The notes beneath the pieces are model-generated. The model did no database searches. It saw nothing but the letters and a program-made list of their open reading frames with translations, and had not been told where the DNA came from. From Bacillota bacterium (lineage in GTDB: Bacteria; Bacillota; SHA-98; Ch115): 40,341 nucleotides of DNA. A program made the translations under genes and the position numbers. Location: the NCBI GenBank assembly GCA_013178415.1, contig JABLXA010000031.1:1-40341 (forward strand), given 5' to 3'. Below are positions 10,806-37,578 of this stretch, one piece after another. Numbering within the stretch: the stretch's first letter is position 1; every line of letters starts with the position of its first letter.

Positions 10806-11749
10806 TTGGCCGGGATTCGCAATTCAGAAAAAATGCCTGCATTATTCGCAATTCTCTTCGCTGCCGCTGTGTGGGGCGCCTCATTTATCAGCACAAAATC
10901 TCTTTTGATCTCTGGACTTACGCCCGTTCAGATTGCATTTGTGAGGTTCAGCATAGCATGCATGATCCTCGTCGGGCTTCAGATTCTGCATGGAACAGGA
11001 AAGTGGGAGCGGCCCTCAAATGAGAATCCCTCGAAACCTCCTTACAACGGTAGAATCCGAATGATGGTCGGCGGAATCATCGGCATTCCTGTATATTTCC
11101 TACTGGAAACACCGGCCTGCGCTTTACCGCGGCCAGCACAGCATCCCTCATCACTGGAACCGTGCCGGTCATCAATGCACTTGTCCTAGTCTTGCTATTA
11201 CATAGCAAAATATCCAGCTCACAGTGGGCGGGCATAGTCCTATCTTGTTTCGGTGTTTACGTTGTCACGCAGGCGGATCTGGCGGCCTCCATATCTGGCC
11301 ATGCAATGCTGGGGAATTTCCTTATTCTCCTTTCATCATGTTCCTGGGTGGCATATACCATCATCAATAAGCCTCTTCTCGACTACTACGATCGGCTCAC
11401 CCTAAACGCCTATCAGAATGTGATAGGGATCATTTGTCTCATTCCATTCGCTCTTCACGATGGCATGCCCACCATGGCTTGGGGCATCAAAGTTTGGCTC
11501 AATATCCTTTACCTCGGCGTAGTGTGTTCAGCGCTTGCCTATATTCTCTATGCATTTGCCCTCAAGCGCCTTGGATCTACAGTAGTTACCAGATTCATCA
11601 ATCTGGTGCCGTTCTTTGGTGTACTAAGTGCCACCATCCTTCTAGGAGAGCCCCTCTCATGGGTGAAAGCCATGAGTGGCATTCTAGCTATCACCGGAGT
11701 GTATCTTGTCAGCGTAGGAGGTGATATTCAACGAGCGATAGGAATATGA
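10806..11749 (+). pseudogene. EamA/DMT-family transporter, frameshifted
   Basis: Ten-helix drug/metabolite transporter with two EamA repeats. Residues up to GIPVYFLLE are read in one frame from TTG 10806 (GGAAGGA ten bases upstream). The rest, from the equivalent of NTGLRFTAASTASLITGTVP through to SVGGDIQRAIGI, is in the next frame. Adding one A to the GAAAC at about 11105-11108 (GAAAAC) restores a perfect reading through the expected conserved segment. This is therefore a one-base deletion in an A run, either a real mutation or a sequencing error. The second half has an ATG at 11162 but is unlikely to work alone. Substrate cannot be predicted. Confidence 0.8.
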
Positions 11750-18816: not shown

Positions 18817-20142
18817 CTAGATCAATGCTTCCTGTTCCAGCCTTATACCTTTCTTCAGCATATGCTCTATCACAGGGTAAAAGCATTCAAACTCGGGGTC
18901 GTCTAACAGCCGCCGGAGGCGGGCGGCATAGCCTTTCGACAAGGGTTTTGCGAATTTCTCATATCGGATCAAAGTGTCCAGATCCATCATGTAAGGCTTG
19001 ATCTCGATTCCGAGGCTCCTCCGGAGATGCACAAATATCGAGAACCCACCATAGTCGATGTCGCCCCAATGGTAGAAATCACAGGTAGCGCCCGGCATAG
19101 GGTTGTCCTGAGTATAACAATAGATGCGCCGGAGCAGCTCCCTTCGGGGCCGGTTGTGATAGCCTCCAAGGTAGATCGCAAGGTATTTCCGGCCCGAAGC
19201 ATCACGATAGCCTGGATTGGCCCTCAGGAATTCATGATAGCTGGTGAGGTTTTCTATTGTTATCACATAATCCGCTTCAAGGCTGGTTATCTGGAGATGC
19301 TCTATCATTGGAGTAGGGAGACCGACATCTGGCACGAAGCATCCGAGGTCTACCGGTCGCCCACATGATTGGCGTCCGATTTGGACTTTATCTGACTTCC
19401 TATAATCAGAAGGTTCCAGGTCAATCTGGACCGTTATTTCACCGCTCAGGTACACATATTGAAAAGTGTCTACCAGGCCGAGTTCTGCCAGTATCTCACC
19501 GGGATCACCCCCCATGGGATGAAAATCCCTCAAAATCGCCCTAATTCGCCCTTCGATTCTTTCAAACGCCTTGCTATCACCAAGCACCCGCGCGCTGAAC
19601 ACTCTCTTGGTCGTCTCTTCATCAAGGGCTGATAGCGCCACAAGCGCGCGGAGGATATTCTCCGTCTCATTATGGTCCGTTATATCGAAATATCGAGCCA
19701 CGCTTTCCCGCGCCGAAAGCCGCTGGAGAGCATAATCAAAGAATTGCGAAAGCCATCCTTCAGATTCTACCCTATCCCGGTAAGTTCGAATCACCTCGAT
19801 CGATCGGGTCACATGATCAGACTTGGGCGTCCTCCCAGCAAACTCGTATGCCGCCTGCACATGATCAAGCGCAAGGTCTATCCTGTCAATTAGGTTACCA
19901 CGCTCGTGCTTTACCCACCTGATGCAGATGATTCCCCGCCGCTCCAGCATCTCCGCTCCTTGATTGATTTCTTTCTTGAACCGTGCGGTGGAATCATCAA
20001 AGTACGCAGGCAGAGTGTCAGGTCGCACGGGAAATGAAACCCGCCTCTTAACCAGGCTGTCGCCACGATAATGGGCGCTCCGTTCGTATTTATCGAGGAG
20101 CGCGTTTAGAATAAAACGCAGGTAATCCATCCTTGAGATCAC
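18817..20142 (-). CDS. jetD: Wadjet nuclease subunit JetD
   Basis: A 441-residue protein of the JetD family (DUF3322-like N-terminal part plus DUF2220 Toprim-like part), the DNA-cleaving subunit of Wadjet, which linearises small circular plasmids. The Toprim-type metal site is visible: Glu297 in VITIENLTSYHEF, and Asp361 and Asp363 in FYHWGDIDYGGFSIF. The long helical N-terminal half is expected to dock on the JetABC loop-extruding complex. Its GTG start at 20142 overlaps the stop of jetC (GTGTGA), with AAGGA just upstream, so it is translationally coupled. It is the last gene of the operon. All expected residues are present, so the system looks complete. Confidence 0.9.
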   Translation of the reverse strand: MISRMDYLRFILNALLDKYERSAHYRGDSLVKRRVSFPVRPDTLPAYFDDSTARFKKEINQGAEMLERRGIICIRWVKHERGNLIDRIDLALDHVQAAYEFAGRTPKSDHVTRSIEVIRTYRDRVESEGWLSQFFDYALQRLSARESVARYFDITDHNETENILRALVALSALDEETTKRVFSARVLGDSKAFERIEGRIRAILRDFHPMGGDPGEILAELGLVDTFQYVYLSGEITVQIDLEPSDYRKSDKVQIGRQSCGRPVDLGCFVPDVGLPTPMIEHLQITSLEADYVITIENLTSYHEFLRANPGYRDASGRKYLAIYLGGYHNRPRRELLRRIYCYTQDNPMPGATCDFYHWGDIDYGGFSIFVHLRRSLGIEIKPYMMDLDTLIRYEKFAKPLSKGYAARLRRLLDDPEFECFYPVIEHMLKKGIRLEQEALI

Positions 20143-23100
20143 ACAGCATCCTTAAGCTGTTCTCCGCCCTCAAGTTGCTCATGTTCGTAGTCTTTAAGCC
20201 GTTTGTAATCCTCAACCCAGCTGCAGTTGCCATTGCGCATCACAAGTAATGTGGTAGTCACATGCGGCGTGATATATTCGCATTTTTCAGTAGGGGCCGC
20301 GATTATGCACTGAAGGCCCAGCGAGGAAATGAACTTCAGGCTGTTTTCGATCCTGTCGCTATCCATACGGTTGAATGCCTCGTCGAACATCATCAACCTG
20401 ATTGTTTGCTCGCTGGTGCGTGCACGATAGAGCTGCAGGAAAGATGCCACAATGGCTACATAATACGGGGTCTGAGTCTCTCCACCTGACTTTTCCCGGC
20501 AGACCCTCGAGAAATATGATATTTCGCCAGCGGAATTCGTGATCCGTATGTCGTAGTCCAGGAATGTCCTGTAGTCTGTAAAAAGATCAAGACTCTCATT
20601 CAGCTCTTCCTCTGATTCGGTGAGAATGCGTTCAAAGAAGGTATCGATGGCCTCCTTGTGTCTCGACTGGAACGCTTCATCAAAGAGCGAGCCTTCCACC
20701 AGGTGGACATCCATTATCATGTCGTAGAATTTCTTGTATTCGGCTGCCGGTGTGGCCATGAAATGATAATGATCGCCACCAAATTCTACTTCCTTCAAGG
20801 CGTCATTCAGGAGGTTGAATTCCATCTGGGCGGTTTCAATATTCTCTTTGAGCCGGTATACAAAATGCTCCTTGAATTCCTCCTCGGCCTCTTTCTTGGC
20901 CACATTGATCTTTTCCTCGTATTCAGGTAGCTCGCTCTCAATGAGCTTCTTGCGCTCTGCTTCATATTCGCTGATGTTGTCCGGGTCCGTAAGCCCGCCG
21001 AAGTGATAGGCACTGTTGTAATTCATCTGGAGAAGGGTGAGCTCCTCCCGTTTCTTCGCGATCATCGTCTCCAGACCCTTGCGGCTTGCGGTGAAGTTGG
21101 TGATGATCTGCGCTGCCGGCTTACTGGCTCTCTCGCGCCTGTACCGGTCTTCCCATGCCTCTTCCCGCCCCGGGTGCCGGGCCAGGAATGATTCCAGGTC
21201 AGCTGCTTTCTGCTCCCGCGCCAGCTTTGCTTCAACCTGGCGTTCCTGGCAGGTCTTGATCTCCGAGGTGAGTTGCCCCTCCTGCCTGCTCAGGCTGCGA
21301 ATGCGTTCCCGCGCGCGATCTAGCTCGGCCTTGATTTGCGCCATTTCCTCCTCGATGCGCTTCACATCGGAAACATCGATCGAATCCAGTTCCCTTTTGA
21401 GAGAGGCGAGCTGGCGATCGAGGTCCTCCAAATCCTCAAACACGCTTAGGTTTTCACGTATTCGGTAAAATCGCTCATCCTTGCCGGCGGTGAGATCCAC
21501 GAGCCTCTTTCTGCGCGCGCATTCCACCTTCAAGGATTCGCGGGATAAGTCTATTTCCCGAAGCTGCGCCTCCTTGCGCGCAATCTGGCGGGCATAAGCT
21601 CTCTGGCCTATAAATGGCGTTTCATAGACGTGGAAAGGAATCTGCCGCGCCACATTGTTGCGGTATGTCATGCATGTCGGCGTGATGGCCTGGCGATAGC
21701 GTTTCAGCTCCTGTTCATTCTCACACTTGATCACGTGGCCCAGCAGCTGGTTGATATAAGCTCTGGCGTAAGGATCGTTGGTTTTGACCTCTGTGGCCAG
21801 TGAATTCGGCTCAGCGCGGTATCCACCCTCCAGCACCTTGCCTGTGTTAACCAATCCTACGCCGAAGATATTTCTGGCCCGCTTGTACTTTTCATATATT
21901 GAAAGGGCAAAATCAAAATACTTTGGCGGCACTATGAGGTCGAACCTCTGCGTATTGAGGAAGCCTTCAACCGCGTCCTGCCATTTTTCATTGGGCACTT
22001 CCAGCAGCTCGCATAGAACGGCCGGCTTCACATCCGCCTGCAGGTCTTCCCAGGCCCTTTCAGAGATAAGATCCCGGAGGTCCGTTATTCTCTTGTCATA
22101 TACGAGCTTGTGAGCGCGCAGGCTTTCGAGCTCCTTCTCCAGCGTGCGGGCCTGCTGGTCAAGAGATTGCAATTCGTTCTGGCGCTCCCACAGCTCCTTG
22201 CTCCACCTGAAATTGAGATTGGCGAATAATTCCCTGGCCATCTCGACCGTCGGGGCGCAATCCTTTACCCTCACATCCTCATGCTGGATTGCATCAAGGA
22301 GGCGGCGGAAATCATCCAGGCTCTTCCGGCCTTCTTCCAGGGATTCTGGAGGAGCCGCCTCGGTAAGGGCCAGGATCTCCTTGGACTCCTCCGCAGCAAG
22401 CCGTTTCAGATCAATTATTCGGGCCTCAAGACTGCTCTTCTCCTGATTGAGCCGGCCAATCTCTGCCTGGAGCTCCCGTATGCGCTGGTAAGTGGCGTTC
22501 GCCGCAAGGAGGTCGCGGCAGGCGATGTATCGCTGGTCCAGGGAATCCTCATCCTGTCGCGCCTCATTCAGCGCGGCCAGCACCTGGTCAAGGGCGGCAT
22601 TCTTCTGGGATTCCTCATTCGCAAGCTCCAGGAGCCGTTCCTCCTCCTGCTCCAGCGTTGCCCGACAGATCAGATAGTCCTGAGTGAGAGCGCGCTCATA
22701 TTCCTGGCCGATATCTTCATACTTGGCGCGGATTCCCTCGAGCGCGGCGATCTTCGCCTTTGTCTGTTCGACAAGGTCGCTATACTCCTTATACCGCTCG
22801 AAATTCTCGCGCATGACGTCTATATTCACGCGCTTTTCATCCAAAACGTATGAATAGACGAATTGGCGGATATCAGTAATCGGCTTGAATGAAATAGCTT
22901 TCACGAAAAGGGTGAAAAAGCGCTCCCCGAGAGAACCCAATTTCATAAGGAGGTCTTCTCTATATTGCTCGACAGAAGGATAGACAATCGCGTCATAGCC
23001 CTTCATGTGAATCTTGAACTCGCGAATGTTGCGCGGGCGCTTGCCTACGAGGAAGAGGTCATCGGTTATCCTTTGCCTCTCGATCTTGAAGAAGTTGGTC

Positions 23101-23474
23101 TTGTAAGTCATCCCATCGGCATATGAATCCATCACTGCGCCGATGATGAAATATTCGTCCTTGGAATGGTCGCAGAATTCAAGAGCGATATATGAGGTGA
23201 TGTCCCCCTGCCGTAGGGACTTTTCACCGTTTTCGGTGGCGACGCCGGTCTTGCAGCGGAGGTAGCCGAGAAGGTCGCGCCTGGTTTCTTCATGGGCTGA
23301 CACATTGAATCGTACCTGGCGGAGGTCCGCCACGAGGACATACTGTATGGCATCTAGGATCGTGGATTTCCCAGTGCCGTTATCACCGGTGATAAGGACG
23401 CTCCCCTTGATATTGAGCTCCTCGTTACTGAAATAATGCCAGTTGATGAGCCTGATCTTGGTCAATTCCTTCAC
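20139..23474 (-). CDS. jetC: Wadjet SMC-like ATPase JetC
   Basis: A 1,111-residue SMC/MukB-like ATPase, the motor of Wadjet. The Walker A motif ITGDNGTGKST is at residues 28-38. Long coiled-coil arms follow with a hinge-like middle (about residues 450-600), then the signature REKSGGETQT and Walker B LMMFDEAFNRMD near the C-terminus. The start is placed at GTG 23474, just in front of KELTKIRLINWHYFSNEEL, the normal opening of the family, with AAGGGG upstream. A longer frame to 23756 would run back through jetB and is rejected. It begins four bases after the jetB stop. By analogy with characterised Wadjet it would work as a dimer, extruding DNA loops to test plasmid size. Confidence 0.93.
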   Translation of the reverse strand: MKELTKIRLINWHYFSNEELNIKGSVLITGDNGTGKSTILDAIQYVLVADLRQVRFNVSAHEETRRDLLGYLRCKTGVATENGEKSLRQGDITSYIALEFCDHSKDEYFIIGAVMDSYADGMTYKTNFFKIERQRITDDLFLVGKRPRNIREFKIHMKGYDAIVYPSVEQYREDLLMKLGSLGERFFTLFVKAISFKPITDIRQFVYSYVLDEKRVNIDVMRENFERYKEYSDLVEQTKAKIAALEGIRAKYEDIGQEYERALTQDYLICRATLEQEEERLLELANEESQKNAALDQVLAALNEARQDEDSLDQRYIACRDLLAANATYQRIRELQAEIGRLNQEKSSLEARIIDLKRLAAEESKEILALTEAAPPESLEEGRKSLDDFRRLLDAIQHEDVRVKDCAPTVEMARELFANLNFRWSKELWERQNELQSLDQQARTLEKELESLRAHKLVYDKRITDLRDLISERAWEDLQADVKPAVLCELLEVPNEKWQDAVEGFLNTQRFDLIVPPKYFDFALSIYEKYKRARNIFGVGLVNTGKVLEGGYRAEPNSLATEVKTNDPYARAYINQLLGHVIKCENEQELKRYRQAITPTCMTYRNNVARQIPFHVYETPFIGQRAYARQIARKEAQLREIDLSRESLKVECARRKRLVDLTAGKDERFYRIRENLSVFEDLEDLDRQLASLKRELDSIDVSDVKRIEEEMAQIKAELDRARERIRSLSRQEGQLTSEIKTCQERQVEAKLAREQKAADLESFLARHPGREEAWEDRYRRERASKPAAQIITNFTASRKGLETMIAKKREELTLLQMNYNSAYHFGGLTDPDNISEYEAERKKLIESELPEYEEKINVAKKEAEEEFKEHFVYRLKENIETAQMEFNLLNDALKEVEFGGDHYHFMATPAAEYKKFYDMIMDVHLVEGSLFDEAFQSRHKEAIDTFFERILTESEEELNESLDLFTDYRTFLDYDIRITNSAGEISYFSRVCREKSGGETQTPYYVAIVASFLQLYRARTSEQTIRLMMFDEAFNRMDSDRIENSLKFISSLGLQCIIAAPTEKCEYITPHVTTTLLVMRNGNCSWVEDYKRLKDYEHEQLEGGEQLKDAV

Positions 23475-23478
23475 GAAA

Positions 23479-24237
23479 TCACGCCCCCCTTGTCGCTGCG
23501 ACTTCGGCATCGGCTTCAACTTGAATAGCCTCCATAGCGTCGCCCTCAGCAGCTCCGCCATCGCTGGCGTCACTCTCGGCAGCCTCGCCCTCAGCGGCCT
23601 CGCTCCCGGCAGTATTGATCTCGTCGGCGTCACCCTCGCCAGCCTCGCTCCCGGCCTGGCGATAAGAAGCCAGCTTCTCATAGACCTGGCGTATGTCGTC
23701 CACCCGCACGGCAAGCAAGATCGAGGGCAAAAGGACCAGCCGGCAGTCAGGATCAACAGAATTTCGATCGAGAACCTCCACCAGGTTGAACCTCTTCATA
23801 AGTGAGATCGCATCCCGGAGCCCTTTCTTATCTATGGGTTTGTCCCGTATTTGAAGGGCGGCATATTTCTCCTGAATCTCCCGCACCCTGATCACCACAT
23901 TTTCGGCGAGCGTAAGCTCGCGCCGCTTTTCCTCATAGCAAAGGCGGACCAGGAGCAAGATTATGCTCTCCTGGAGTCTGAGTTGCAGCCTGTTGAACCC
24001 GTCCCGATTCACAGCCTGGTAGACTCCGAGCCCCTTGTCCCCTATCAGATCCCACCCGGACATCCCCAAGTATCCACGAATCATGGATTCATGTCGCTCG
24101 ATGAAATAGTAATCGCGCCGCTGGTCTTCTTTTCTCTTGGTAATGTAGGTCTGCGCGAGGAGCTTGTTCACTATTCTCCTAAAATCTTCGCGCTGCCCCG
24201 CGGTTAAAGCCTCGTATTCAATGACCCAATCCATCAT
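23479..24237 (-). CDS. jetB: Wadjet kleisin-associated subunit JetB with a repeat tail
   Basis: A 252-residue MukE-like (DUF4194-type) winged-helix subunit. Recognisable parts are VNKLLAQTYITKRKEDQRRDYYFIERHESMI near residues 23-55, the EYEALTAGQREDFRRI opening and the DAISLMKRFNLVEVLD helix near 138-153. After about residue 190 the protein changes to a degenerate acidic tail made of five-residue units of the type A-x-E-x-x (AGSEA, EGDAD, AAEGE and similar), encoded by eight 15-base repeats. Other JetB proteins are not known to me to carry such a tail, and it is probably flexible. It follows jetA after a 71-base spacer and is coupled closely to jetC. Confidence 0.87.
   Translation of the reverse strand: MMDWVIEYEALTAGQREDFRRIVNKLLAQTYITKRKEDQRRDYYFIERHESMIRGYLGMSGWDLIGDKGLGVYQAVNRDGFNRLQLRLQESIILLLVRLCYEEKRRELTLAENVVIRVREIQEKYAALQIRDKPIDKKGLRDAISLMKRFNLVEVLDRNSVDPDCRLVLLPSILLAVRVDDIRQVYEKLASYRQAGSEAGEGDADEINTAGSEAAEGEAAESDASDGGAAEGDAMEAIQVEADAEVAATRGA
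23535..23654. repeat. 15-bp tandem repeats in jetB (8 units)
   Basis: Eight contiguous 15-base units, with plus-strand consensus close to CGGCCTCGCCCTCGG, sit in frame and encode degenerate acidic pentapeptides. The units have diverged by up to half their positions, but the period is kept exactly. The length divisible by three keeps the reading frame open. Confidence 0.75.
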
Positions 24238-24308
24238 TGGCCTGCCTTTCCCTTGATCAGGGATCTCTTGCTAACCTTTTGATCGGGAAATCCCTGTCTT
24301 CCTCTTAG

Positions 24309-25766
24309 TCAGGAAGCCCCCGCCCTTTTTTTGATCAAGAAATCCCTGAGCTCAAAGCGACCGTCGTCGCCCGCGACAGTAAAACGTTGCCCGTCGAATT
24401 CCGCAGTATAATCTACCATCCTGGAATGGCTATATGCCGCGATATAGATCATACGGATAAGATCTTCTATCGTCTTGAGAGGGAACTGGGACGCGCGCGC
24501 ACTCTCTCTTTCACCGAGTTGCTGCAAGACAAATTGATTTATGTGTTCACGTGTCATATTGCTTGCGAGCCTTCTTCTGACCTCGGCGATCGCCTGCGCG
24601 CGCTCTTCTGGATCCAGCTCCGCAAGGCTCACCAGATCCTCCGGGTTGTGGATTCTGCTAATCTCCCTCGCCGTATAGAGAGAGTCTATATCAATGAAAT
24701 TCTGTTCATAGAGGCTGAAAAGCTCTCTTATTTGAGCCGGCACAATGCTATCTTTTCCATATAAAGATTCCTTTAGCAATCCTGCCAGGTATTTTAATAT
24801 CTCCAGTAGCTGGCCTTCCGTATCCTTGCTGCTATTGAGGATGTATTTTATCTGCATAAATGAAGAATTCGCATACTGCGCATTGCGCCTGTCGATTTCT
24901 TCGAGAAGGCTGTCCATGTTGAGATAGCTCTGGCGAATGAAATCCAAGCGCCGATAAGCATCCTGCTTGGCTTCATCAAGGGTCTTGAACCGGCCGCGCC
25001 TGACATCCGCCGCCGCTATTTCAGCGACCCACAGGTCATTCTCATACCATTCGCTGATCTTACTGATGATCCGCGGCCGATATTTGGAAACATTGTCTGA
25101 AGTCTTGAGGCGGTGGTATGAGCGATCCAAAATCTCTTGTTTATACTCATCAAAGTGAATCTTGAGAATCTCTTGAGGCTTCTTTTCCTTGAGCACGAGT
25201 TCGATGTAGCGCTTGATGTTATGGTTCAGCGACTTTAGCCCATTGATCAGCTGCTCGGTTTGCTCATACGCCTTTTCGAGGGCAATATGTCCCTGTTTCC
25301 CGGCTTCCTCAGAATAGAGCAAGGTATAAGTTGCGTACACGTAGCCCTGGTACTCTGCCTGATAGCTGCGCTTGATCTTGTCCAATGTGTCAATGATCTT
25401 GATGGCATAGTCAGTAAGATTGACATATTGCTCATAGTTGCTATAGGTCTCTATGGTAACCCATCCGCAATCTTCGAGCTTGCGCAGTATGAAACTGGCT
25501 CTATCCCTAATATTAGCGGCCGTAAGCATGGAGCTCTCCCATATCTCGTCATCCAGGGCCCGGGTCAGGGAAGCGTCTGAGCTACTGGCCATTTCCTCCT
25601 CGATCACTTCCACCAGGCAATCGATGACGACTTCGCGCGGTAGACCGAAGTTAATGAGAAGGTATTGCTGATAAACAGCAAAAATGGCCTCTGCATATAA
25701 GGCCTTGAGCGGGCTCGCAAGGATACTGAAAAACTTGTCCGGGACAATGTCAAATAACTTTGCCAT
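24309..25766 (-). CDS. jetA: Wadjet kleisin-like subunit JetA
   Basis: A 485-residue MukF-like protein at the head of the Wadjet operon. The opening MAKLFDIVPDKFFSILASPLKALYAEAIF and the helical C-terminus (RMIYIAAYSHSRMVDYTAEF) fit the JetA family once labelled DUF5716, not the DUF3375 type. I therefore lean to the Wadjet class with that JetA, but have not tested this by alignment. It would bridge the two JetC heads and bind JetB. Start ATG 25766 is chosen because AGGA lies eight bases before it; a GTG at 25772 is also in frame. The 5' untranslated stretch is an array of 17-base repeats, and a TATAAT promoter lies beyond. Confidence 0.85.
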   Translation of the reverse strand: MAKLFDIVPDKFFSILASPLKALYAEAIFAVYQQYLLINFGLPREVVIDCLVEVIEEEMASSSDASLTRALDDEIWESSMLTAANIRDRASFILRKLEDCGWVTIETYSNYEQYVNLTDYAIKIIDTLDKIKRSYQAEYQGYVYATYTLLYSEEAGKQGHIALEKAYEQTEQLINGLKSLNHNIKRYIELVLKEKKPQEILKIHFDEYKQEILDRSYHRLKTSDNVSKYRPRIISKISEWYENDLWVAEIAAADVRRGRFKTLDEAKQDAYRRLDFIRQSYLNMDSLLEEIDRRNAQYANSSFMQIKYILNSSKDTEGQLLEILKYLAGLLKESLYGKDSIVPAQIRELFSLYEQNFIDIDSLYTAREISRIHNPEDLVSLAELDPEERAQAIAEVRRRLASNMTREHINQFVLQQLGERESARASQFPLKTIEDLIRMIYIAAYSHSRMVDYTAEFDGQRFTVAGDDGRFELRDFLIKKRAGAS

Positions 25767-25782
25767 GGGCACCGTCCTGAAT

Positions 25783-26032: not shown

Positions 26033-26161
26033 TAATACAATATTCGATATCACGGCCGGGCAATTGCAATTTGCTATCGCCCCGTGGTACCTGTTGTCGG
26101 TCTTTACGGGACGAGGATCATGGGCGGGTTAAAAACAGCATACCATGAAGAGTCTCCTTGT

Positions 26162-26425
26162 CATACCTACGACGCCGTTGACGCGCATGCCATTACCATG
26201 GTAAAATGAGGAAGTAAGGAGAATGGCTCGAAGTCATGGCTTCCAGATGCGCCTGATCCCTATGACCAATACCCACCATGCAACGATGGAAGAACTCGTC
26301 ATTGGTAAGGACCTATCGTGGCTAGACAGACTCCCAGCAGTGCATGAGCCTGAAGTTGAATACCGGGAGTAATTCAAGCGGAGCCGGAGGAGTCCAGATC
26401 AAAAGGTCCATCTCGGAGCCCATAT
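26162..26425 (+). pseudogene. Relic copy of the restriction-modification unit (promoter joined to methylase end)
   Basis: 26162-26211 matches 32919-32968, the promoter region of the intact cassette, with only a few changes. At 26211 it jumps directly to the last ~54 codons of the D12 methylase (matching 34701-34862: HGFQMRLIPMTNTHHATMEE and on to EYRE), then to its downstream flank (to about 26425, matching to about 34915). The whole endonuclease and most of the methylase are deleted. The join occurs at GAAGTAAGGA. The preserved promoter has TTGACG (26178-26183) and TAAAAT (26202-26207). Confidence 0.9.
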
Positions 26426-26796
26426 TCCGGATCGCCCGTCACCAGTACGGCCTGCTGCTGTGCGGCGAGAGCCAGCCCAAAGCAGTCGGCATAAGACATT
26501 CGATACCCCGCCTTATAATGCGCCGCCCGTAGAGTCACCCCACGCGAGACATCCACCTGCTCAATCGGCAGGCTGTCAATCATCGAAAGAGCCGCTTGGG
26601 CTGCCTGGATAGATTCCTCTCACTCGATAATGTAGAGAATCTCACCCAGATTGATTACGGACATTGATAGCTTGACTTCCCCATGTCTCGCCCGTTCCAG
26701 TAGGCTGGTGACAACTTCGCCGCCGGTCTCGCCTTGCAGCCACGCCAAGATCGCATGGCTATCTGGAACATATTGGGAGCTACCCTCATGGGTCAT
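26374..26796 (-). pseudogene. VapC PIN-domain toxin broken by an in-frame stop
   Basis: A PIN-domain toxin read in one frame from ATG 26796 (overlapping the antitoxin stop as ATGA). It has VPDSHAILAWLQGE, then NLGEILYIIE and, after a TGA at 26622-26620, EESIQAAQAALSMIDSLP, SYADCFGLALAAQQ and LVTGDPEYGLRDG. All parts of the fold are present and the only fault is the single TGA, most simply a CGA (Arg) to TGA change. Its last codons overlap the methylase relic's flank. A trace of the same gene end is detectable beside the intact cassette at about 34870-34915. Confidence 0.8.
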
Positions 26797-27241: not shown

Positions 27242-28399
27242 TCAACTATTGCCACGGGGCCTATGATTGGGTATCTCATCTTGGAAAAGACTGGGATGAA
27301 GTGTGCTACTCTCATACCATCCCACCAGCGACGGAGAATTAACATCATGACCTTCTGCTTTGGATGCCCCAGCTGCCCCCTTGAATGCGTCTACTCCCGT
27401 AGCGTAGCAGTAAACACAGCCATGACGGCATGTCCCATAGACTCCTATGTCCTTACTTTGAACGCAACCGCAAGCGGCCCGCTGATGAGGGTCCTTTTTA
27501 TTCGTTACCCTGATGCCAAAGACCCTTTCAATGTATTCATCATCAATGCATTTCCCAGGTTTGATCCCAAAAGGAAGGAGGTCATATTCTTCCGCACAAC
27601 TCACGATTTCCATCCCGGAGTCTTCGGCCACATTGGCCATAGTCGAGAGCAGACTTGCTACATCAGGATTTTCCGGAGTACAGGGTTCGAAGTATATGCC
27701 TTGTTTGGCAAGCCGCGCAAGCCGGACACCGGCCCCATGATAATCATCTACCAAGCTCACAACAACACGCCTGGTCTTACCCCGCAGTGCCTTCGCGATC
27801 TCTCGAAAGCGTCTTTCATGGTACTGCCGGATTCCATGATGAAAAGATCGGTAGTAAGGACTTTCATGACGAGGGGTTCCATGGTCGTGGACCCCATGAT
27901 CGCAGGTTCCATAACCCCGGACTCCATAACTGAAGGCACCGTGATCGCAAGCTCCATGACCACGGGCCCCTTGACCGCAGGCTCCATGATCCTGGACTTC
28001 ATGACAAGCCTGGCCGTCGACATTTCCCCAAAGTACCGGATCGTAGCGCCAAATCACCCTTTCGGGCGATATCCTCTCCGAAAGCTGTTCAAAGGTACGT
28101 AAGATTTCTTCGAGCTGCGGCACGCCAGGCTCTATCAACTTGGGGTAACCATTCACCGTGAACTGAAAATAGTAGCGCAGGCCCATGCCGTCAAGTTCAT
28201 CCAGATAAGGTATGAGAGGTTTCGGGTCTTTGCTCCAGAATACGATCACATCCACATCTTCTGGCCGCAAAGAGACCTCCACAATCTGCTTTCTATTGAA
28301 GGGGTTCGGGAATGTGCAGTAGCCTGCCCTAATCCGGTTCATAAACCATTCCGGGTAAAATTTAGGGATATCGGTGCGTCTGCTTGCACTGATAATCAA
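27242..28399 (-). CDS. DUF1848-family protein with pentapeptide-repeat insert
   Basis: A 385-residue protein of the uncharacterised DUF1848 family, whose members have a barrel with cysteine clusters suggestive of a radical-SAM-like metal site. The N-terminus (MIISASRRTDIPKFYPEWFM, then VIVFWSKDPKPLIPYL) and the ending (HQRAACGCVQSKDIGVYG then CRHGCVYCYA) are typical; the late cysteines would bind Fe-S. Between about residues 130 and 180 a repeat of units like CDHGA, RGHGA and HDHGV interrupts the barrel. This array is encoded by ten 15-base repeats. A truncated copy of the gene's first ~64 codons lies at 32521-32712. Function is unknown. Confidence 0.8.
   Translation of the reverse strand: MIISASRRTDIPKFYPEWFMNRIRAGYCTFPNPFNRKQIVEVSLRPEDVDVIVFWSKDPKPLIPYLDELDGMGLRYYFQFTVNGYPKLIEPGVPQLEEILRTFEQLSERISPERVIWRYDPVLWGNVDGQACHEVQDHGACGQGARGHGACDHGAFSYGVRGYGTCDHGVHDHGTPRHESPYYRSFHHGIRQYHERRFREIAKALRGKTRRVVVSLVDDYHGAGVRLARLAKQGIYFEPCTPENPDVASLLSTMANVAEDSGMEIVSCAEEYDLLPFGIKPGKCIDDEYIERVFGIRVTNKKDPHQRAACGCVQSKDIGVYGTCRHGCVYCYATGVDAFKGAAGASKAEGHDVNSPSLVGWYESSTLHPSLFQDEIPNHRPRGNS
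27861..28010. repeat. 15-bp tandem repeats in the DUF1848 gene (10 units)
   Basis: Ten contiguous 15-base units with consensus close to GCTCCATGACCGCAG on the plus strand. They are in frame on the minus strand and give pentapeptides with a His-Gly or Tyr-Gly core. Period and phase are exact throughout, with base changes in every unit. Confidence 0.85.
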
Positions 28400-30199: not shown

Positions 30200-30320
30200 A
30201 TTCGCTTCCGCTTTAGGCTATTGCTATTTCCAAGTGGGTTGCCACGAATCGGCATTCGGATGCTACCGTCATGCCCCGACTGGACTCCTGACCCACAATC
30301 TCCTTAAGCTATGGCTGTAA
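30200..30320 (+). pseudogene. Possible HEPN-domain remnant
   Basis: The short reading GYCYFQVGCHESAFGCYRHA, then LLTHNLLKLWL, resembles the C-terminal half of HEPN proteins, where a paired-helix segment with YF..Q..E.A..A is followed by THNLL. About 180 bases upstream is a nucleotidyltransferase remnant, the partner usually found with HEPN. The similarity is weak and the piece is short. Confidence 0.35.
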
Positions 30321-31178
30321 TCTCAGCCGCAAATAGAGCCAATGATCCGGGCAATCTATACCAAGACTACAATCCATAATGAAACTAACATGAGCGCTGA
30401 TATGAAGCCCCTTATCTATCCGTGGGGCCAGCATCTCCGCCAACGTCCGTCTGAGATAACCAAGATCCTTGCCTTCAATGGTGACAACACGGATAGCATT
30501 GGGATCATTTGAGTTTTCTTTTTCACGCAGGAGGTAGACTTCATCGCCCACATGGAGAGTTTTGAGATTTTCCGGCCGGTCATCATATCTGGTTCCGACC
30601 ACACGAGCATAGAATCCCTTTACATTTTCATAATAGTCGTAAACCTCTATCATCTGTTCGCCAAGAAGCACTCCCCACATAAATCCTTGCGGAACATGCT
30701 TCCCGCCATAAGGTCGATGGAAGGAATGATGGTATTCCTCTGCGAAAGCATTGAGTAGAATATCGGGCGGGACCAATTCCTTCACCAGTCTTATCTCTTG
30801 ATGCCGCCATTTGGGGATCCCAGCCAGATCATTGGTCCCTGGGGCAAGCGCCCCCTTGCGAAGGAACGCGATGCCTCGCAGCATGGTGCCCAAATGATAG
30901 TCATCTTCCCCAAAGCCATCTAGCAAGCCTTTAGCGAGAGCTTCTTGGATGACATCTCTCATTATATTTCCCCCTATCTCCCTGATATAACCTCCCTGAA
31001 ATTGACGGGACTCACCAGTGCTGGCATCCTCGCGGAGAATAGTGCCAGTGGTTAGAACAGCACTGCCGTCTAGCATCGTCCGCCACGGATGTTCGCCAGG
31101 GATTATGTTGGTAATTGACATCATAATGGATAATGGCAAACGACAGCGTTTCTGATTTCGCTGATGCCTGGCTTTCAC
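30309..31178 (-). CDS. HIRAN-domain protein
   Basis: A 289-residue protein whose C-terminal ~100 residues are a HIRAN domain (FYARVVGTRYDDRPEN, then LHVGDEVYLLREKENSNDPN and VTIEGKDLGYLRRTLAEML). HIRAN domains recognise damaged or single-stranded DNA ends in helicase partners. Here no helicase or nuclease is fused. The N-terminal ~180 residues include PPDILLNAFAEEYHHSFHRP and resemble no family I know. The start is uncertain: GTG 31178 opens the frame, but MMSITN near 31124 is also plausible and neither has a clear ribosome binding site. It lies between a DUF362 gene and a HAD hydrolase gene, all on the minus strand. Confidence 0.7.
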   Translation of the reverse strand: MKARHQRNQKRCRLPLSIMMSITNIIPGEHPWRTMLDGSAVLTTGTILREDASTGESRQFQGGYIREIGGNIMRDVIQEALAKGLLDGFGEDDYHLGTMLRGIAFLRKGALAPGTNDLAGIPKWRHQEIRLVKELVPPDILLNAFAEEYHHSFHRPYGGKHVPQGFMWGVLLGEQMIEVYDYYENVKGFYARVVGTRYDDRPENLKTLHVGDEVYLLREKENSNDPNAIRVVTIEGKDLGYLRRTLAEMLAPRIDKGLHISAHVSFIMDCSLGIDCPDHWLYLRLRLQP

Positions 31179-32009: not shown

Positions 32010-32520
32010 CCCTTTGCATCAGTCCTGCAATTCTATCCCTTTGCGCACCCCTGCGATTCCATTTCATGAAATGATGCAGCAGTCACATCTTCGGCTCGTA
32101 TTTCTGATACACGTGAAACCGTCCCCTCCATGAGGCCATGCCTCCAGCCATCCTTTCAATAGTGGGTAAAGGAGCCCTACATTCAAATCCGACCCGTGCG
32201 ATTTCTGTGGTTATATTCAACATCTGACTGCAAATTCCTGGTGAGATTCACTCCAATTGGCATTCTCTACAGGGAACATATAGATAAGCAAGCCCAAATT
32301 CAGAAGTTGAGCCCGTTGTGGAGAATATGCACAAGGAGCGAGCCTGCGGCGCACGCAAGGTTGCAACTGCGCGGGAGATTGTGACAACCGATCTTTATCC
32401 CCTGGAGTGCGCGCATGGTTGCAACTTTGGCGTTGGCCATCTGCAGCTATGGGGTCTTATTAATGGCATGCTCTCCGAATCGCCTCAGGAACAGGCCCTT
32501 GCTGTCCGGCTCATGTAGAC
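32010..32520. other. Spacer without a recognised gene
   Basis: About 510 bases. I find only short frames without family resemblance. GGTTGCAACT occurs twice (near 32360 and 32420). The left part has near-repeats of TCCCTTTGC/TATCCCTTTGCG (about 32010-32050). No RNA gene or promoter is evident. Confidence 0.4.
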
Positions 32521-32712
32521 AGGGCAAAAAGGTTTCGGGTCCTTGCTCCAGAACACAATCACATCCACATCCTCCGGCCGCAAAGACACCTCGATAACCT
32601 GCTTTTTATTGAACGGGTTCGGGAATGTACAGTAGCCAGCCCTGATCCGGTTCATAAACCACTCCGGGTAGAATTTGGGAATGTCAGTGCATCTGCTGGC
32701 GCTGATGATCAT
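32521..32712 (-). pseudogene. Truncated copy of the DUF1848 gene
   Basis: The reading MIISASRCTDIPKFYPEW and onward through VIVFWSKDPKPF is nearly identical to the first ~64 codons of the gene at 27242-28399. Then similarity stops. The rest, including the pentapeptide-repeat and cysteine regions, is absent. It lies directly before the promoter of the NotI-like cassette, on the other strand. Confidence 0.85.
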
Positions 32713-32934
32713 TGTAGCCACCCGTCCCCTCTCCTTTGATTATAACAGGCGGAGGAAAAGACTGTCGAAGCAATGCCGTAATCCGAGCTTATTTTCTTTC
32801 CGTTCCCTCTCCTTACAAGCCATATAGGGACAGCCGCGCCCGAGTAATGCCAACCTAATAGCGAAACGCGGGCACTATGTGCTTCCGCGACACAAATACT
32901 ATGATCCCATATGAGAATCATGCCTACGACGCCG

Positions 32935-32964
32935 TTGACGTGCATGCCTTTACCATGGTAAAAT
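32935..32964 (+). promoter_or_regulatory. Promoter with palindromic operator for the R-M cassette
   Basis: TTGACG (32935-32940) and TAAAAT (32959-32964) are 18 bases apart. The 14-base perfect palindrome TTTACCATGGTAAA (32949-32962) covers the end of the spacer and most of the -10 element. The arrangement is copied, with few changes, at 26178-26207, where the operator core TTACCATGGTAA is also kept. A repressor, perhaps an R-M control protein, could bind here. No such regulator gene was recognised in this window. Confidence 0.7.
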
Positions 32965-33042
32965 AAGGTTAATCCGGATCCGTTGCAGAATTATATAGGA
33001 TCTGTATGATTGGCAGCCATAATATGGGAAAGGATGACATCC

Positions 33043-33919
33043 ATGGCTGGTCTAGGGCAACCGCTGGCAGAGGTCTTCGGTCACTTGATAACCGACCATT
33101 CAAAGAGGGCTGAAAGATATCGATCGCATCGTCTTTGCCCTTTCAACAACAAGGTGCCGAATTGTACGAAAGTTAAGGCGAAGAATCCGCTCGGCGTTTG
33201 CTCAATTTATCATGAGAATCATCCGGTTATCACTTGTCCGATTCGCTTCCGAGAAAATTGGATTATAGCCGACGATGCGACGGATTTCTTCTTTGGTAAG
33301 GGCGCAAAATGGAGTTCTCTTACAGAGGTTCGCTTAAATGATCTACACGGTAAATCTGCCGGGAATATTGATGTTGTGCTTGTTGCATATGAGGATATAT
33401 GATTTTGGCGCTCTCGAGATCCAGGCAGTGTATATTTCTGGGAATGTCCGCGACCCATTTGAATACTTTATGAAGGACCCTCAAGGCCGAGAACTGATGG
33501 AATGGCCTAAGGGTCCAGACTATCCAAGGCCTGATTACCTTTCGTCTTCTCGCAAACGACTTGCTCCCCAGCTTCTTTTCAAGGGTGGGATCCTTCATTG
33601 TTGGAAAAAGAAAATCGCCGTAGCATTGAACAAGAGCTTCTTCGCTGCTCTACCCAGCTTGAAAAGAGTGCCGAAATCCGATGCAGATATTGCGTGGTTC
33701 ATTTACGAGTTGGTATTGTCCAAAGGAGAAGGCCAAGAATCAGAGAGATACTGTCTTAAAAAAGTGGACGAAATCTTTACCGAGTTTGAGCCTGCTCTTC
33801 GTTCTATCACTACACCATCGCCAGAAAGAATCGAGGATTTCATGAGACTACTACAGGAAAAACTTGACGAACAGCTCGAAGTTCCGCCAGCGAATAAAAC
33901 GATTGAAAGGCCGTTTTGA
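33043..33919 (+). pseudogene. NotI-like type II restriction endonuclease, frameshifted
   Basis: Nearly full-length protein of the NotI family of type II endonucleases. Part one is read from ATG 33043: GLGQPLAEVFGHLITDH, RLCPFNNKVPNCTK (with the metal-binding cysteines of NotI-type proteins), SLTEVRLNDLHGKSAGNIDVVLVAYED. A TGA at 33400-33402 ends this frame. Part two is in the next frame: IYDFGALEIQAVYISGNVRDPF. The shift at about 33393-33396 separates the Asp (NIDVV) and Glu (LEIQ) residues that make up the nuclease centre. One extra base or two missing bases would explain it. Part two ends two bases before the methylase start. Confidence 0.82.
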
Positions 33920-33920
33920 T

Positions 33921-34862
33921 ATGGGCATCTATAGACAGGGGTTGTTATTTCCTGAGTCATCTCAAGAAATGAGAATACCGAAACCTGTAAATGTAGCGTC
34001 TGTCCCACAGCGAAGCCCATTCCGCTACCCTGGAGGGAAGACATGGTTCGTACCCACATTCAGACAATGGGCGGCATGGCTTCAACCAAAGCCCAGTATC
34101 CTTGTCGAGCCCTTCGCCGGTGGAGGCATTATCAGCCTTACCGCTCTCTTTGAGAATCTTGTCCAAAGGGCGGTTATGGTAGAGTTGGACGAAGAGGTTG
34201 CCGCAGTCTGGGCATCTATCGTAAACGGAGACGCAGAATGGCTGGCTAATCGAATCCTCTCTTTTAACCTGACGAAAGAAGCCGTTATGCAAGAAATAAA
34301 GAAGATCCCTGGAACCCAAAGAGAAAAAGCATTTCAAACGATTCTCAAGAACCGAGCATTGCATGGAGGGATACTTGCCGAAGGTTCAGGATTTCTCAAG
34401 TATGGAGAAAATGGGAAGGGGATCCGTTCCCGTTGGTATCCGGAAACCCTTGCTAAGAGGCTCTTAAACTTAAATCTCATCGCTGACAGAATCGATTTCC
34501 GCTGTGACGATGGGTTAAAGGTCATGCTGGAGTTTGCCGCCAATCCAGATGTGATATACTTCATAGACCCTCCATACACCGCCGGTGGGAAAAGAGCTGG
34601 CAGGCGATTGTATAAATATTGTGACCTCGACCATGAGCACTTATTTACACTGTGCGAGTCATTAAAGGGCGATTTTCTGATGACATATGATAATGCAGAA
34701 GAAGTAAGGAAAATGGCTCGAACTCATGGTTTCCAGATGCGCCTGATCCCTATGATTAATACTCATCATGCAACGATGGAAGAACTCATCATCGGTAAGG
34801 ACCTATCGTGGCTAGACAGTCTCCCCGCAGTACATGAGCCGGAAGTTGAATACCGGGAGTAA
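33921..34862 (+). CDS. D12-class adenine-specific DNA methyltransferase
   Basis: A 313-residue DNA methyltransferase of the D12 (Dam-like) class, predicted to make N6-methyladenine. The SAM-binding region begins FRYPGGKTWFVP (residues 34-45) and has VEPFAGGG at 62-69. The catalytic DPPY is at residues 216-219 in VIYFIDPPYTAGGKRAG. All motifs are intact, in contrast to the endonuclease upstream. ATG 33921 is two bases after the endonuclease stop, so they are probably co-translated. It should protect the host from the cognate endonuclease, but NotI itself cuts a GC-only site, so the recognition sequence of this pair should differ or the methylase may have been acquired separately. Confidence 0.88.
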   Translation: MGIYRQGLLFPESSQEMRIPKPVNVASVPQRSPFRYPGGKTWFVPTFRQWAAWLQPKPSILVEPFAGGGIISLTALFENLVQRAVMVELDEEVAAVWASIVNGDAEWLANRILSFNLTKEAVMQEIKKIPGTQREKAFQTILKNRALHGGILAEGSGFLKYGENGKGIRSRWYPETLAKRLLNLNLIADRIDFRCDDGLKVMLEFAANPDVIYFIDPPYTAGGKRAGRRLYKYCDLDHEHLFTLCESLKGDFLMTYDNAEEVRKMARTHGFQMRLIPMINTHHATMEELIIGKDLSWLDSLPAVHEPEVEYRE

Positions 34863-35055
34863 TTCAAGCGGAGCGGGGGGAATCCAGATTAAAGAATCCA
34901 TCTCGAGACCCTAGTTGCGGGACAGCCTACGCCAAGCGAGCCAACGGGCCCATACCCTGCGAAACAAAGTGTTTAGATGGCTAGATGGGTTATAGCATTA
35001 GCTATATTTAGTGCAGTATAATATGATTGAAAATTACTGGAAAGCGGGTGTCCTA

Positions 35056-35652
35056 ATGCAGCAAAAAGAGGTATTCACTATTGGCCATTCAACTCACTCG
35101 CTTGAGACCTTCATAAATCTTCTAAAACAACATGGGATACAAATTGTGGTCGATGTCCGGTCCTATCCGTATTCAAAGCATGTGCCGCAATTCAATGCAT
35201 CTAACCTGCCCTGAGCCTTAACTGTAGCCGGAATCAAATACTCGTTTATGGGTCAGGAATTAGGTGGACGTCCAAAGGGATCTCAGTTTTATGATGATGA
35301 CGGCCATGTACTTTATTCCCAGATAGCCAAAACGCCCGCCTTTACGCAAGGCATTTCACAGCTTGAAGATGGGCTGGAAAAGTCTCGAATAGCTATAATG
35401 TGTAGCGAGGAAGACCCAACAGTCTGCCATCGCTGGCTTCTTGTTGGGCGCGTGCTAAGAGAACATGGTGTACAGGTAAAGAATATCAGGGGGGATGGAA
35501 GGATTCAAACGGAAACGGCATTCGCTGATGGGAGGCATAGCAGAGACGGTGGTATGCAAGTGTCGCTCTTTCCAGAACAGGAGGTAGATGAATGGAAGTC
35601 TATACGATCGGTTTTTCACAAAAGTCAGCCGAAACCTTCTTCGGTACCTTGA
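35056..35652 (+). pseudogene. DUF488-family protein with premature stop
   Basis: Full-length DUF488 protein in one frame except for a TGA at 35212-35214. The start VFTIGHSTHSLETFINLLKQ and VVDVRSYPYSKHVPQFN precede it; ELGGRPKGSQFYDDDG and IAIMCSEEDPTVCHRWLL follow. The C-terminal ending (SLFPEQEVDEWKSIRSV) is also the family's usual one. A CGA to TGA change would explain the stop. Restart at ATG 35248 would lack the N-terminal motif. DUF488 proteins are small and of unknown activity. The gene overlaps the next by ~60 bases. Confidence 0.85.
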
Positions 35653-36029
35653 GACAAATCGGAATCAAGCGACTCATAGATGTACGCCTTAATAATATAT
35701 CTCAGCTTGCAGGATTTGCGAAGGCCAAAGATCTTCCTTTTTTTCTTCGTGAGCTTTGTAACGCCGAGTACCTCTACGAGCCGTTATTTGCCCCTTCTCA
35801 AGAGATCCTAGATTCCTATAAAAAAGGGAAAGGATCTTGGCAGACATACGAACAGCAGTTTCTGACATTGATGGAAAAGCGTAAAATTGAAGAAAGAATC
35901 CCTCGGAGCCTTTTTGACGTTCCTTCTGTGCTTCTCTGCAGTGAGGCGTCCGCTGACCATTGCCATCGTCGGCTGGTACTTGAGTACCTTCAGAAAAAAT
36001 GGGGAGGCATAGGAATCAGACACCTGTAA
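35592..36029 (+). CDS. Second DUF488-family protein
   Basis: A 145-residue DUF488 protein. The family landmarks are VYTIGFSQKSAETFFGTLRQ at the N-terminus, LIDVRLN near residue 28, the F-A-K segment before LPFFLRELC, and VLLCSEASADHCHRRLVLEYL at the end. It is intact and shorter than its neighbour. Its ATG at 35592 follows GAGGTAG. Two such proteins in tandem and then a DuOB-like gene make a set that I associate with genomic-conflict loci, but the function is not known. Confidence 0.85.
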   Translation: MEVYTIGFSQKSAETFFGTLRQIGIKRLIDVRLNNISQLAGFAKAKDLPFFLRELCNAEYLYEPLFAPSQEILDSYKKGKGSWQTYEQQFLTLMEKRKIEERIPRSLFDVPSVLLCSEASADHCHRRLVLEYLQKKWGGIGIRHL

Positions 36030-36041
36030 GAGGGTCATGTC

Positions 36042-36731
36042 GTGGAAGCCACTGAAATCGTCTGCCTGGCTAACTCCCGAAAGCTGAATGGTAGGTGTGT
36101 GGCTGGGTTGAGAACTGATGGCAGGGGATGGGTACGCCCCGTTTCGGATCGTCTAGACGGAGCACTTTTGCCGCACGAATATAGACTGAATGACGGATCA
36201 GGGACAGGGGTATTAGATATCGTCAAGCTTAACCTTCTGACACGATGCCCGAGACCTCATCAGCCCGAGAATTGGCTTACAAATTCATGGCGTCTAGTCA
36301 GGCGTCCTGCCTCTAAGGGCATAATTCCCTTGCTGCGTTCAAATCTCGTGAATGGGCCTGAGCTATTAGGCAATACATTCGACCGCGTTCCTGCGGCATC
36401 TTTCTCGAGCACGCCTGCACCATCGTCCCTGGCGCTAGTTGAGCCTAAAAACCTACAACTATACATTACTTTGAATGTGAGAAATAGGAAACAACCTCGA
36501 GCTATATTCGAACTATCTAGGGTGCGCTATAATCTTGCAATTACAGATCCTTTTTGGGAAGAACGGTTAGGAGTACTCTCAACAGGTCTATACCAGCCAA
36601 CTGCTATAGGTTTACAGCCTCACGATAAGATCTTGCTCACTATCAGTCTAGGTGAACCATTTGAAGGCTATTGTTATAAATTGGTAGCCGCGATCATTGT
36701 ATTGCCGCAGAGCTGGAGGAGATTCTGGTGA
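36042..36731 (+). CDS. Probable dual-OB-fold (DuOB-like) protein
   Basis: A 229-residue protein that resembles the DuOB-type proteins that commonly neighbour DUF488 genes. The N-terminal half has EIVCLANSRKLNGRCVAG and GRGWVRPVSD; the second half has LYITLNVRNRKQPRAIFELSRVRYNLAITDPFWE, which suits a beta-barrel that binds nucleic acid or nucleotides. Start is GTG 36042, with AGAGGG about eight bases upstream, twelve bases after the second DUF488 gene, so one operon. The last gene of the cassette. Its role with DUF488 is not established. Confidence 0.6.
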   Translation: MEATEIVCLANSRKLNGRCVAGLRTDGRGWVRPVSDRLDGALLPHEYRLNDGSGTGVLDIVKLNLLTRCPRPHQPENWLTNSWRLVRRPASKGIIPLLRSNLVNGPELLGNTFDRVPAASFSSTPAPSSLALVEPKNLQLYITLNVRNRKQPRAIFELSRVRYNLAITDPFWEERLGVLSTGLYQPTAIGLQPHDKILLTISLGEPFEGYCYKLVAAIIVLPQSWRRFW

Positions 36732-37080: not shown

Positions 37081-37578
37081 GTGAGCGGTTGCGCGAACTG
37101 ATTGCTGCCGGGGAATCCATCACGGTAGAGTTCAATAGGGGAGGCTAGACACCCCCTTCCCGACGGGGAACTGGTAGAAGCGGTGGTCTGTCTTGCAAAC
37201 CGAAACCATGGCGATGAGGGATGGCTCCTTGTTGGAGTGGAAGACGATGGGACGATAACTGGAGCCCGCCCCCGGCACGGTGATACGATCGATCTAGCTC
37301 GCAGCGTGGTTGAGGGTCTTGTAGAACGCGGCTTTCTAGAGCGGCGGGGCGAACGCGGAGCACGCACCTATCATCTCTCGGCTGCCATTTACCGCAGGCT
37401 TGGCCAAAAGTCGGCCTATGTCCGGATTCGGGGTTTTGAGCCCGAACAGCAGAGGCAGATGATTATCCAGTATGAAAATAATCGTGCAGAAACGAGCGCG
37501 CTCGTTTTTTTTGGCGGTTCAGAAACGAGCGCTCGATTATTAGTTCCATCTAGAACATTATCCACTGTTGGGGCGTAA
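37081..37578 (+). pseudogene. AlbA_2/Schlafen-like ATP-binding gene remnant
   Basis: Two ends of a once longer gene. From about 37083 it reads RLRELIAAGESITVEFNRGG, then stops. One frame over it continues PLPDGELVEAVVCLANRN and EGWLLVGVEDDGTITGARP, matching the N-terminal AlbA_2 domain of RecG-like/Schlafen-type proteins. Then the sequence jumps to ARSVVEGLVERGFLERRGERGARTYHLSAAIYRRLGQ, which matches the C-terminal winged helix of the same family. The ~250-350 middle residues are missing. It is non-functional. A T8 hairpin lies in its 3' end. Confidence 0.75.
37491..37512 (+). terminator. Rho-independent terminator
   Basis: AACGAGCGCGCTCGTT is a perfect palindrome followed by a run of eight T residues. 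A partial copy (GAAACGAGCGCTCG) follows about 30 bases on. Orientation would end transcripts from the DUF488/DuOB side. It lies in the 3' end of the AlbA_2 remnant. Confidence 0.6.

What the first reader, a model, noticed from the sequence alone, without database searches (positions are those of the whole stretch)
33043..36731. NotI-like endonuclease, D12 methylase, two DUF488 proteins and a DuOB-like protein in one cassette
Five genes lie on one strand, with tight spacing within the two sub-units (R/M: 2 bases; DUF488/DUF488/DuOB: overlap and 12 bases) and a ~190-base gap between them. NotI cuts GC-only DNA, yet the methylase is an adenine-type D12 enzyme, so the pairing is unexpected. DUF488 and DuOB are poorly understood families that may extend the restriction module, for example by acting on damaged or modified DNA. 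This is the best candidate here for a little-described composite defence system.
Basis: partly seen in the sequence, partly recalled or inferred. Interest (0 to 1): 0.65.

Follow-up and report, generated by a model that had tools for sequence, protein, structure and literature searches.

The report
Two separate, decaying defence modules side by side
What looked like one five-gene defence cassette is a widespread restriction-modification pair with a broken cutting enzyme, lying next to an unrelated and already catalogued candidate defence module (also with one broken gene); nothing in relatives suggests that the two work together.

Summary
The NotI-like endonuclease is frameshifted by an 11-nt deletion inside its catalytic core, and the first DUF488 gene has an in-frame TGA. 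The five genes are two independent modules. (1) NotI-family endonuclease plus D12 adenine methylase is a very widespread type II restriction-modification pair: 72 of 80 named loci from many phyla have NotI directly upstream of this D12, as do plasmids of Thermus, Achromobacter and Aeromonas. None of the 80 has DUF488 or DuOB nearby. Pairing with an adenine methylase is therefore normal for this clade; other NotI-family clades pair with C5 or N4/N6-class methylases. (2) DUF488-DUF488-DuOB is PADLOC's phage-defence candidate PDC-M45. It recurs, in either order, beside BREX, Wadjet, CBASS or type III CRISPR, but never beside NotI-D12 in about 33 loci checked. In 398 genomes of the phylum 7 have NotI, 12 have DuOB, and only this genome has both. 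The best reading is chance co-residence in a decaying defence island that also holds Wadjet. A structural lead: the DuOB model is a tandem OB-fold protein whose top matches are HIN-200 DNA sensors and RPA.

The parts
32918..32968 (+). 5' flank of NotI with a promoter-like TTGACG-18-TAAAAT (32935-32964); repeated at 26161-26211
   Evidence: 92% identical repeat; promoter-like match, number in the region not above chance
33043..33919 (+). NotI-family type II restriction endonuclease, pseudogene: 11-nt deletion at about 33396-33399 between the catalytic Asp and the Glu-x-Gln; Cys4 metal-site cysteines present
   Evidence: PF12183 in two frames; family profile matches NotI structure 3bvq E 1.1e-6; deletion seen against five relatives
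33921..34862 (+). D12-class DNA adenine-N6 methyltransferase, intact (FRYPGGKT, DPPYTAGG motifs)
   Evidence: PF02086 E 1.6e-9; 42-62% identity to six homologues; up to 80% to named loci
35050..35652 (+). DUF488 protein, PDC-M45B, interrupted by in-frame TGA at 35212-35214
   Evidence: PF04343 on both halves; PDC-M45B E 1.7e-31 for the second half; alignment A5
35592..36029 (+). DUF488 protein, PDC-M45C, intact, with conserved CxE...CHR
   Evidence: PF04343 E 1.3e-19; PDC-M45C E 2.3e-64; invariant C116, E118, C124, H125, R126
36042..36731 (+). DuOB (dual OB domain) protein, PDC-M45A, intact, GTG start
   Evidence: PF22557 E 3.1e-47; PDC-M45A E 1.2e-45; model pLDDT 88
26161..26430 (+). remnant of a second NotI-D12 copy: 5' flank joined to the last 54 codons and 3' flank of the methylase, about 1.73 kb lost
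   Evidence: direct repeats D1 (87%) and D3 (92%); differences by codon position 1/3/10

Best explanation
Two unrelated defence modules sit next to each other in a decaying defence island. Module 1 is a type II restriction-modification system. The D12 methylase adds N6-methyl-adenine at a site that contains an A, and the NotI-fold, Cys4, PD-(D/E)XK-type endonuclease would cut that site when unmethylated. In this genome the endonuclease is dead, so at most the methylation activity remains. Module 2 is the candidate defence system PDC-M45. A tandem-OB protein (DuOB) probably binds nucleic acid, and two cysteine-based DUF488 enzymes probably process nucleic-acid ends or nucleotide phosphates; here one DUF488 is interrupted. 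Shown: gene identities, lesions, independent conservation of each module, absence of linkage. Inferred from family knowledge: cleavage and methylation chemistry, and the sensing and processing roles in module 2.
For: NotI directly upstream of D12 in 72 of 80 named loci, 3 of the other 8 being cut off by the contig end, and in plasmids L009, L011, L012. None of these 80 carries DUF488/DuOB. The DUF488-DUF488-DuOB unit recurs without NotI/D12 in same-phylum genomes, plasmids, IMG/VR contigs and other genomes. In the phylum 7 of 398 genomes have NotI, 12 of 398 have DuOB, and only the own genome has both. PADLOC already names the trio PDC-M45 A/B/C. The island also has a full JetABCD Wadjet at 18817-25772 and a deleted second NotI-D12 copy. 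NotI catalytic and Cys4 residues align with 3bvq.
Against: One IMG/VR locus has DuOB-DUF488-DUF488 inside a BREX operon beside the PglX methylase gene (L128), so a link of this module to methylation-based systems cannot be dismissed altogether. The two modules share strand and are only about 190 bases apart, so co-transcription here is possible.
Confidence: 0.87

Rival explanations
1. The five genes are one composite system: the restriction enzyme makes ends, DuOB recognises the ends, and the DUF488 enzymes modify them so that phage DNA cannot be repaired.
For: Same strand, short gap. PDC-M45 once lies inside a BREX operon with a methylase. The DuOB model resembles tandem-OB DNA binders.
Against: 0 of 80 NotI-D12 loci have the trio and about 33 trio loci have no NotI/D12; genome-level co-occurrence is at background. 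Both units have a broken gene here.
Confidence: 0.04
2. The lesions are sequencing or assembly errors and both modules are intact and active in the living strain.
For: Each lesion is a single event; the rest of each gene is well conserved (NotI C part dN about 0.11-0.14 against relatives).
Against: An 11-nt deletion against five relatives is not a typical read error. Other genes in the window are also split (10806-11749, 16161-17656), and a second NotI-D12 copy has lost 1.73 kb. NotI is split in 8 of the 72 related pairs while the methylase is open, so loss of the nuclease is common.
Confidence: 0.08
3. The D12 gene is a PD-lambda-5 type system (compact R-M plus abortive infection) rather than a NotI-type R-M.
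For: Best PADLOC match of the methylase is PD-Lambda-5_B, E 4.2e-36. PD-lambda-5 has been described as a compacted prophage version of an RM+Abi system (PMC9519451).
Against: The partner gene is NotI family; intact NotI homologues match no PD-Lambda-5_A model.
Confidence: 0.04

Closest known systems
NotI-family type II R-M with 'DNA adenine methylase' partner (Thermus brockianus plasmid pTbrSNM4-1c, Achromobacter pEST4011, Aeromonas pKAM497_4)
   Same: Same gene order, NotI then D12, close spacing; methylase 62% (Thermus) and 47% identical
   Different: Endonuclease broken in the window; no DUF488/DuOB next to the plasmid copies
NotI itself (PDB 3bvq/3c25)
   Same: Profile match E 1.1e-6 over 200 positions, including the CPF, C-K, GVC and CP cysteines and the D ... 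E-x-Q catalytic residues
   Different: No significant single-sequence similarity. NotI cuts an all-GC site (own knowledge), which m6A could not protect, so the specificity must differ.
PADLOC PDC-M45 (A DuOB, B and C DUF488)
   Same: All three components match their models (E 1.2e-45, 1.7e-31 for the second half of B, 2.3e-64)
   Different: B component interrupted by a nonsense codon
Rhodanese-phosphatase superfamily, RapZ-C/DUF488/DUF4326 clade (Burroughs and Aravind 2023; recalled, not held in the library)
   Same: DUF488 with conserved CxE...CHR. Some trios carry DUF4326 instead of one DUF488. The Viruses 2022 paper calls DUF4326 a clade of this superfamily (PMC9503650).
   Different: Function predicted only; the DUF488b model matched PTP-fold structures only at E about 0.008 or weaker
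HIN-200 domains and RPA (tandem OB folds)
   Same: Top structural matches of the DuOB model (p202 HIN2 E 6.2e-4; IFI16, MNDA, p204, RPA)
   Different: TM-score only 0.2-0.4, sequence identity 6-14%; no homology claim

Membership tests
Type II R-M of the NotI family | PF12183 nuclease domain | tested here: met
   E 2.5e-22 and 2.8e-36 on the two halves
Type II R-M of the NotI family | catalytic Asp ... Glu-x-Gln and Cys4 metal site | tested here: met
   Residues aligned with 3bvq and conserved in A3; in the window they are split over two frames
Type II R-M of the NotI family | intact nuclease gene | tested here: not met
   11-nt deletion, frameshift
Type II R-M of the NotI family | adjacent cognate methylase conserved across relatives | tested here: met
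   72 of 80 loci
Type II R-M of the NotI family | nuclease and methylase recognise the same site | not testable with these tools
   needs methylome and digestion
PDC-M45 candidate defence system | DuOB (A) plus two DUF488 (B, C) adjacent on one strand | tested here: met
PDC-M45 candidate defence system | all components intact | tested here: not met
   in-frame TGA in B at 35212
PDC-M45 candidate defence system | protects against phage | not testable with these tools
   no experimental paper found in the library
PD-lambda-5 | PD-Lambda-5_A partner next to the B methylase | tested here: not met
   NotI partner; no PD-Lambda-5_A match
NotI orthologue (GCGGCCGC specificity) | methylase that protects a site without A | tested here: not met
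   partner is a D12 adenine methylase; inference from enzyme class, not measured

The most novel reading that the evidence does not exclude
DuOB is a bacterial tandem-OB nucleic-acid sensor, architecturally like HIN-200 DNA sensors, that triggers two DUF488 cysteine enzymes to process DNA or RNA ends. It would be a portable defence unit that is plugged next to, or into (BREX in L128), end-generating or methylation-based systems.
Probability: 0.15. Interest if true: 0.55.

Novelty: new member of a known kind. Interest (0 to 1): 0.24.

Why it matters
It removes a false lead (a composite R-M system) and settles the apparent paradox: NotI-family enzymes form separate clades with D12, C5 or N4/N6-class methylases, so the family name does not predict the site. 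The D12-partnered clade is large (at least 569 methylase relatives in the scan) and a plausible source of rare cutters with A-containing sites. For PDC-M45, the recurrence in defence islands and the tandem-OB model give a testable hypothesis.

Tried and rejected
DUF488/DuOB literature: no paper with both terms in the library; the Burroughs and Aravind 2023 paper is not held. A conserved operator or recognition-site palindrome upstream of NotI: the window has TTTACCATGGTAAA, but it is not shared by relatives, and common 6- and 8-mers are near the shuffled level, so it was dropped. DuOB in 50,697 cultured phage records: none. Single-sequence searches of NotI, DuOB and DUF488 in the PDB: none. 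The dN/dS of the D12 remnant was computed out of frame and is superseded. In one search dS was saturated for most pairs, so only dN is used.

Full report
What is there. The five genes exist at the stated place on the + strand. The NotI-family endonuclease (PF12183) is split over two frames, 33010-33402 and 33338-33919. Against five relatives the window lacks exactly 11 nt at about 33396-33399, between the catalytic aspartate (NIDVVLV) and the Glu-x-Gln (ALEIQAVY), so no active enzyme is expected. The D12 adenine methylase 33921-34862 is open and has the expected motifs. The first DUF488 gene has an in-frame TGA at 35212-35214; the second DUF488 and the DuOB gene are open.

Module 1, restriction-modification. 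With a profile of seven D12 proteins, one scan of the genome collection found at least 569 relatives; the best 80 (organisms from many phyla, 57-80% identity) were kept. Local profile searches show a NotI-family gene directly upstream of the D12 in 72 of the 80; 3 of the other 8 end at the contig edge. Plasmids of Thermus, Achromobacter and Aeromonas carry the same pair, annotated as NotI family restriction endonuclease plus DNA adenine methylase. A profile of 23 NotI rows finds the solved NotI structure 3bvq at E 1.1e-6, with the four cysteines and the catalytic residues aligned.

The pairing paradox. In the host's phylum, more distant NotI-family genes lie next to C5-cytosine methylases (four loci) or an N4/N6-class methylase (one locus). 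In a tree of 88 NotI proteins the D12-partnered and the C5/N4-partnered proteins fall on two sides of one branch, with far fewer partner changes than under shuffled labels (long branches among the C5/N4 rows make their internal order unsure). So the family name does not fix the target; the D12 clade must recognise a site with an A (inference from enzyme class).

Module 2, PDC-M45. PADLOC already lists DuOB, DUF488 and DUF488 as PDC-M45 A, B and C. DuOB is accompanied by DUF488 in nearly every locus seen: same-phylum genomes, six further genomes, plasmids and IMG/VR contigs, in both gene orders, sometimes with a DUF4326 protein in place of one DUF488. Neighbours include Wadjet JetC-JetD and MkoC (L110), a BREX operon with the trio between pglX and pglZ (L128), CBASS and type III CRISPR genes. 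Other trios lie among housekeeping genes. It was not found in 50,697 cultured phage records. This fits a portable defence candidate; no experimental proof was found in the library.

No linkage between the modules. Of the 80 NotI-D12 loci none has DUF488 or DuOB in the stretch held (63 have at least 1.9 kb downstream, 50 at least 5 kb). Of about 33 DuOB loci none has NotI or this D12. In 398 genomes of the phylum 7 carry NotI and 12 carry DuOB; only the own genome has both, against about 0.2 expected by chance. DuOB occurs in 3 of 50 NotI-D12 genomes, never in the same stretch as NotI, against 12 of 398 in the phylum sample.

A decaying island. The region holds a complete Wadjet operon (18817-25772) and the remnant of a second NotI-D12 copy at 26161-26430: its 5' flank is joined to the last 54 codons and the 3' flank of the methylase, with about 1.73 kb lost. 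The remnant differs from the intact methylase at codon positions 1/3/10, so the two copies diverged under selection before one was deleted. NotI is split in 8 of 72 related pairs while the methylase is open; the loci were chosen by the methylase, so this comparison is biased, but nuclease loss is clearly common.

Mechanism of module 2. The DuOB model (pLDDT 88) is two OB folds. Its best structural matches are HIN-200 domains and RPA (E 6e-4 to 0.01, TM-score 0.2-0.4), which suggests nucleic-acid binding. The DUF488b model (pLDDT 89.5) matches PTP-fold phosphatases and tetrapyrrole/diphthine-synthase-like methylase folds only weakly, in line with the rhodanese-phosphatase assignment recalled from Burroughs and Aravind 2023 (not held). 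A sensor plus end-processing enzymes is the most likely reading, but it is inferred.

Verdict. Ordinary juxtaposition of two known kinds of module, both damaged. Low interest as a composite; modest interest for the NotI-D12 clade and for the DuOB fold lead.

Noticed in passing
window 18817-25772 (- strand): Complete type I Wadjet operon: JetD 18817-20142, JetC 20139-23756, JetB 23479-24237, JetA 24309-25772.
   Followed up: partly
window 26161-26430: Remnant of a second NotI-D12 unit with a 1.73 kb internal deletion.
   Followed up: yes
window 32485-32721 (-) and 27242-28399 (-): A DUF1848 fragment duplicates the start of an intact DUF1848 gene (about 83% over 221 bases), next to the NotI copy.
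   Followed up: partly
L128 7995-9696: DuOB-DUF488-DUF488 sits inside a BREX operon between pglX and pglZ, followed by brxL, on an IMG/VR contig.
   Followed up: partly
L197, L198, L200, L201, L199: NotI-family genes paired with C5-cytosine methylases or an N4/N6-class methylase instead of D12.
   Followed up: yes
L140, L143, L147: On viral contigs NotI-family genes lie convergent or divergent to the D12 methylase instead of in tandem.
   Followed up: no
window 37183-37578: Weak Schlafen AlbA_2 match (E 3.8e-4, below cut-off) in a short ORF downstream of DuOB, perhaps another pseudogene.
   Followed up: no
window 10806-11749 and 16161-17656: Two further genes look split into two ORFs each (a permease-like and a transposase-like protein), consistent with general decay.
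   Followed up: no
window 30309-31178 (-): HIRAN-domain protein (E 5.2e-15) near the island.
   Followed up: no
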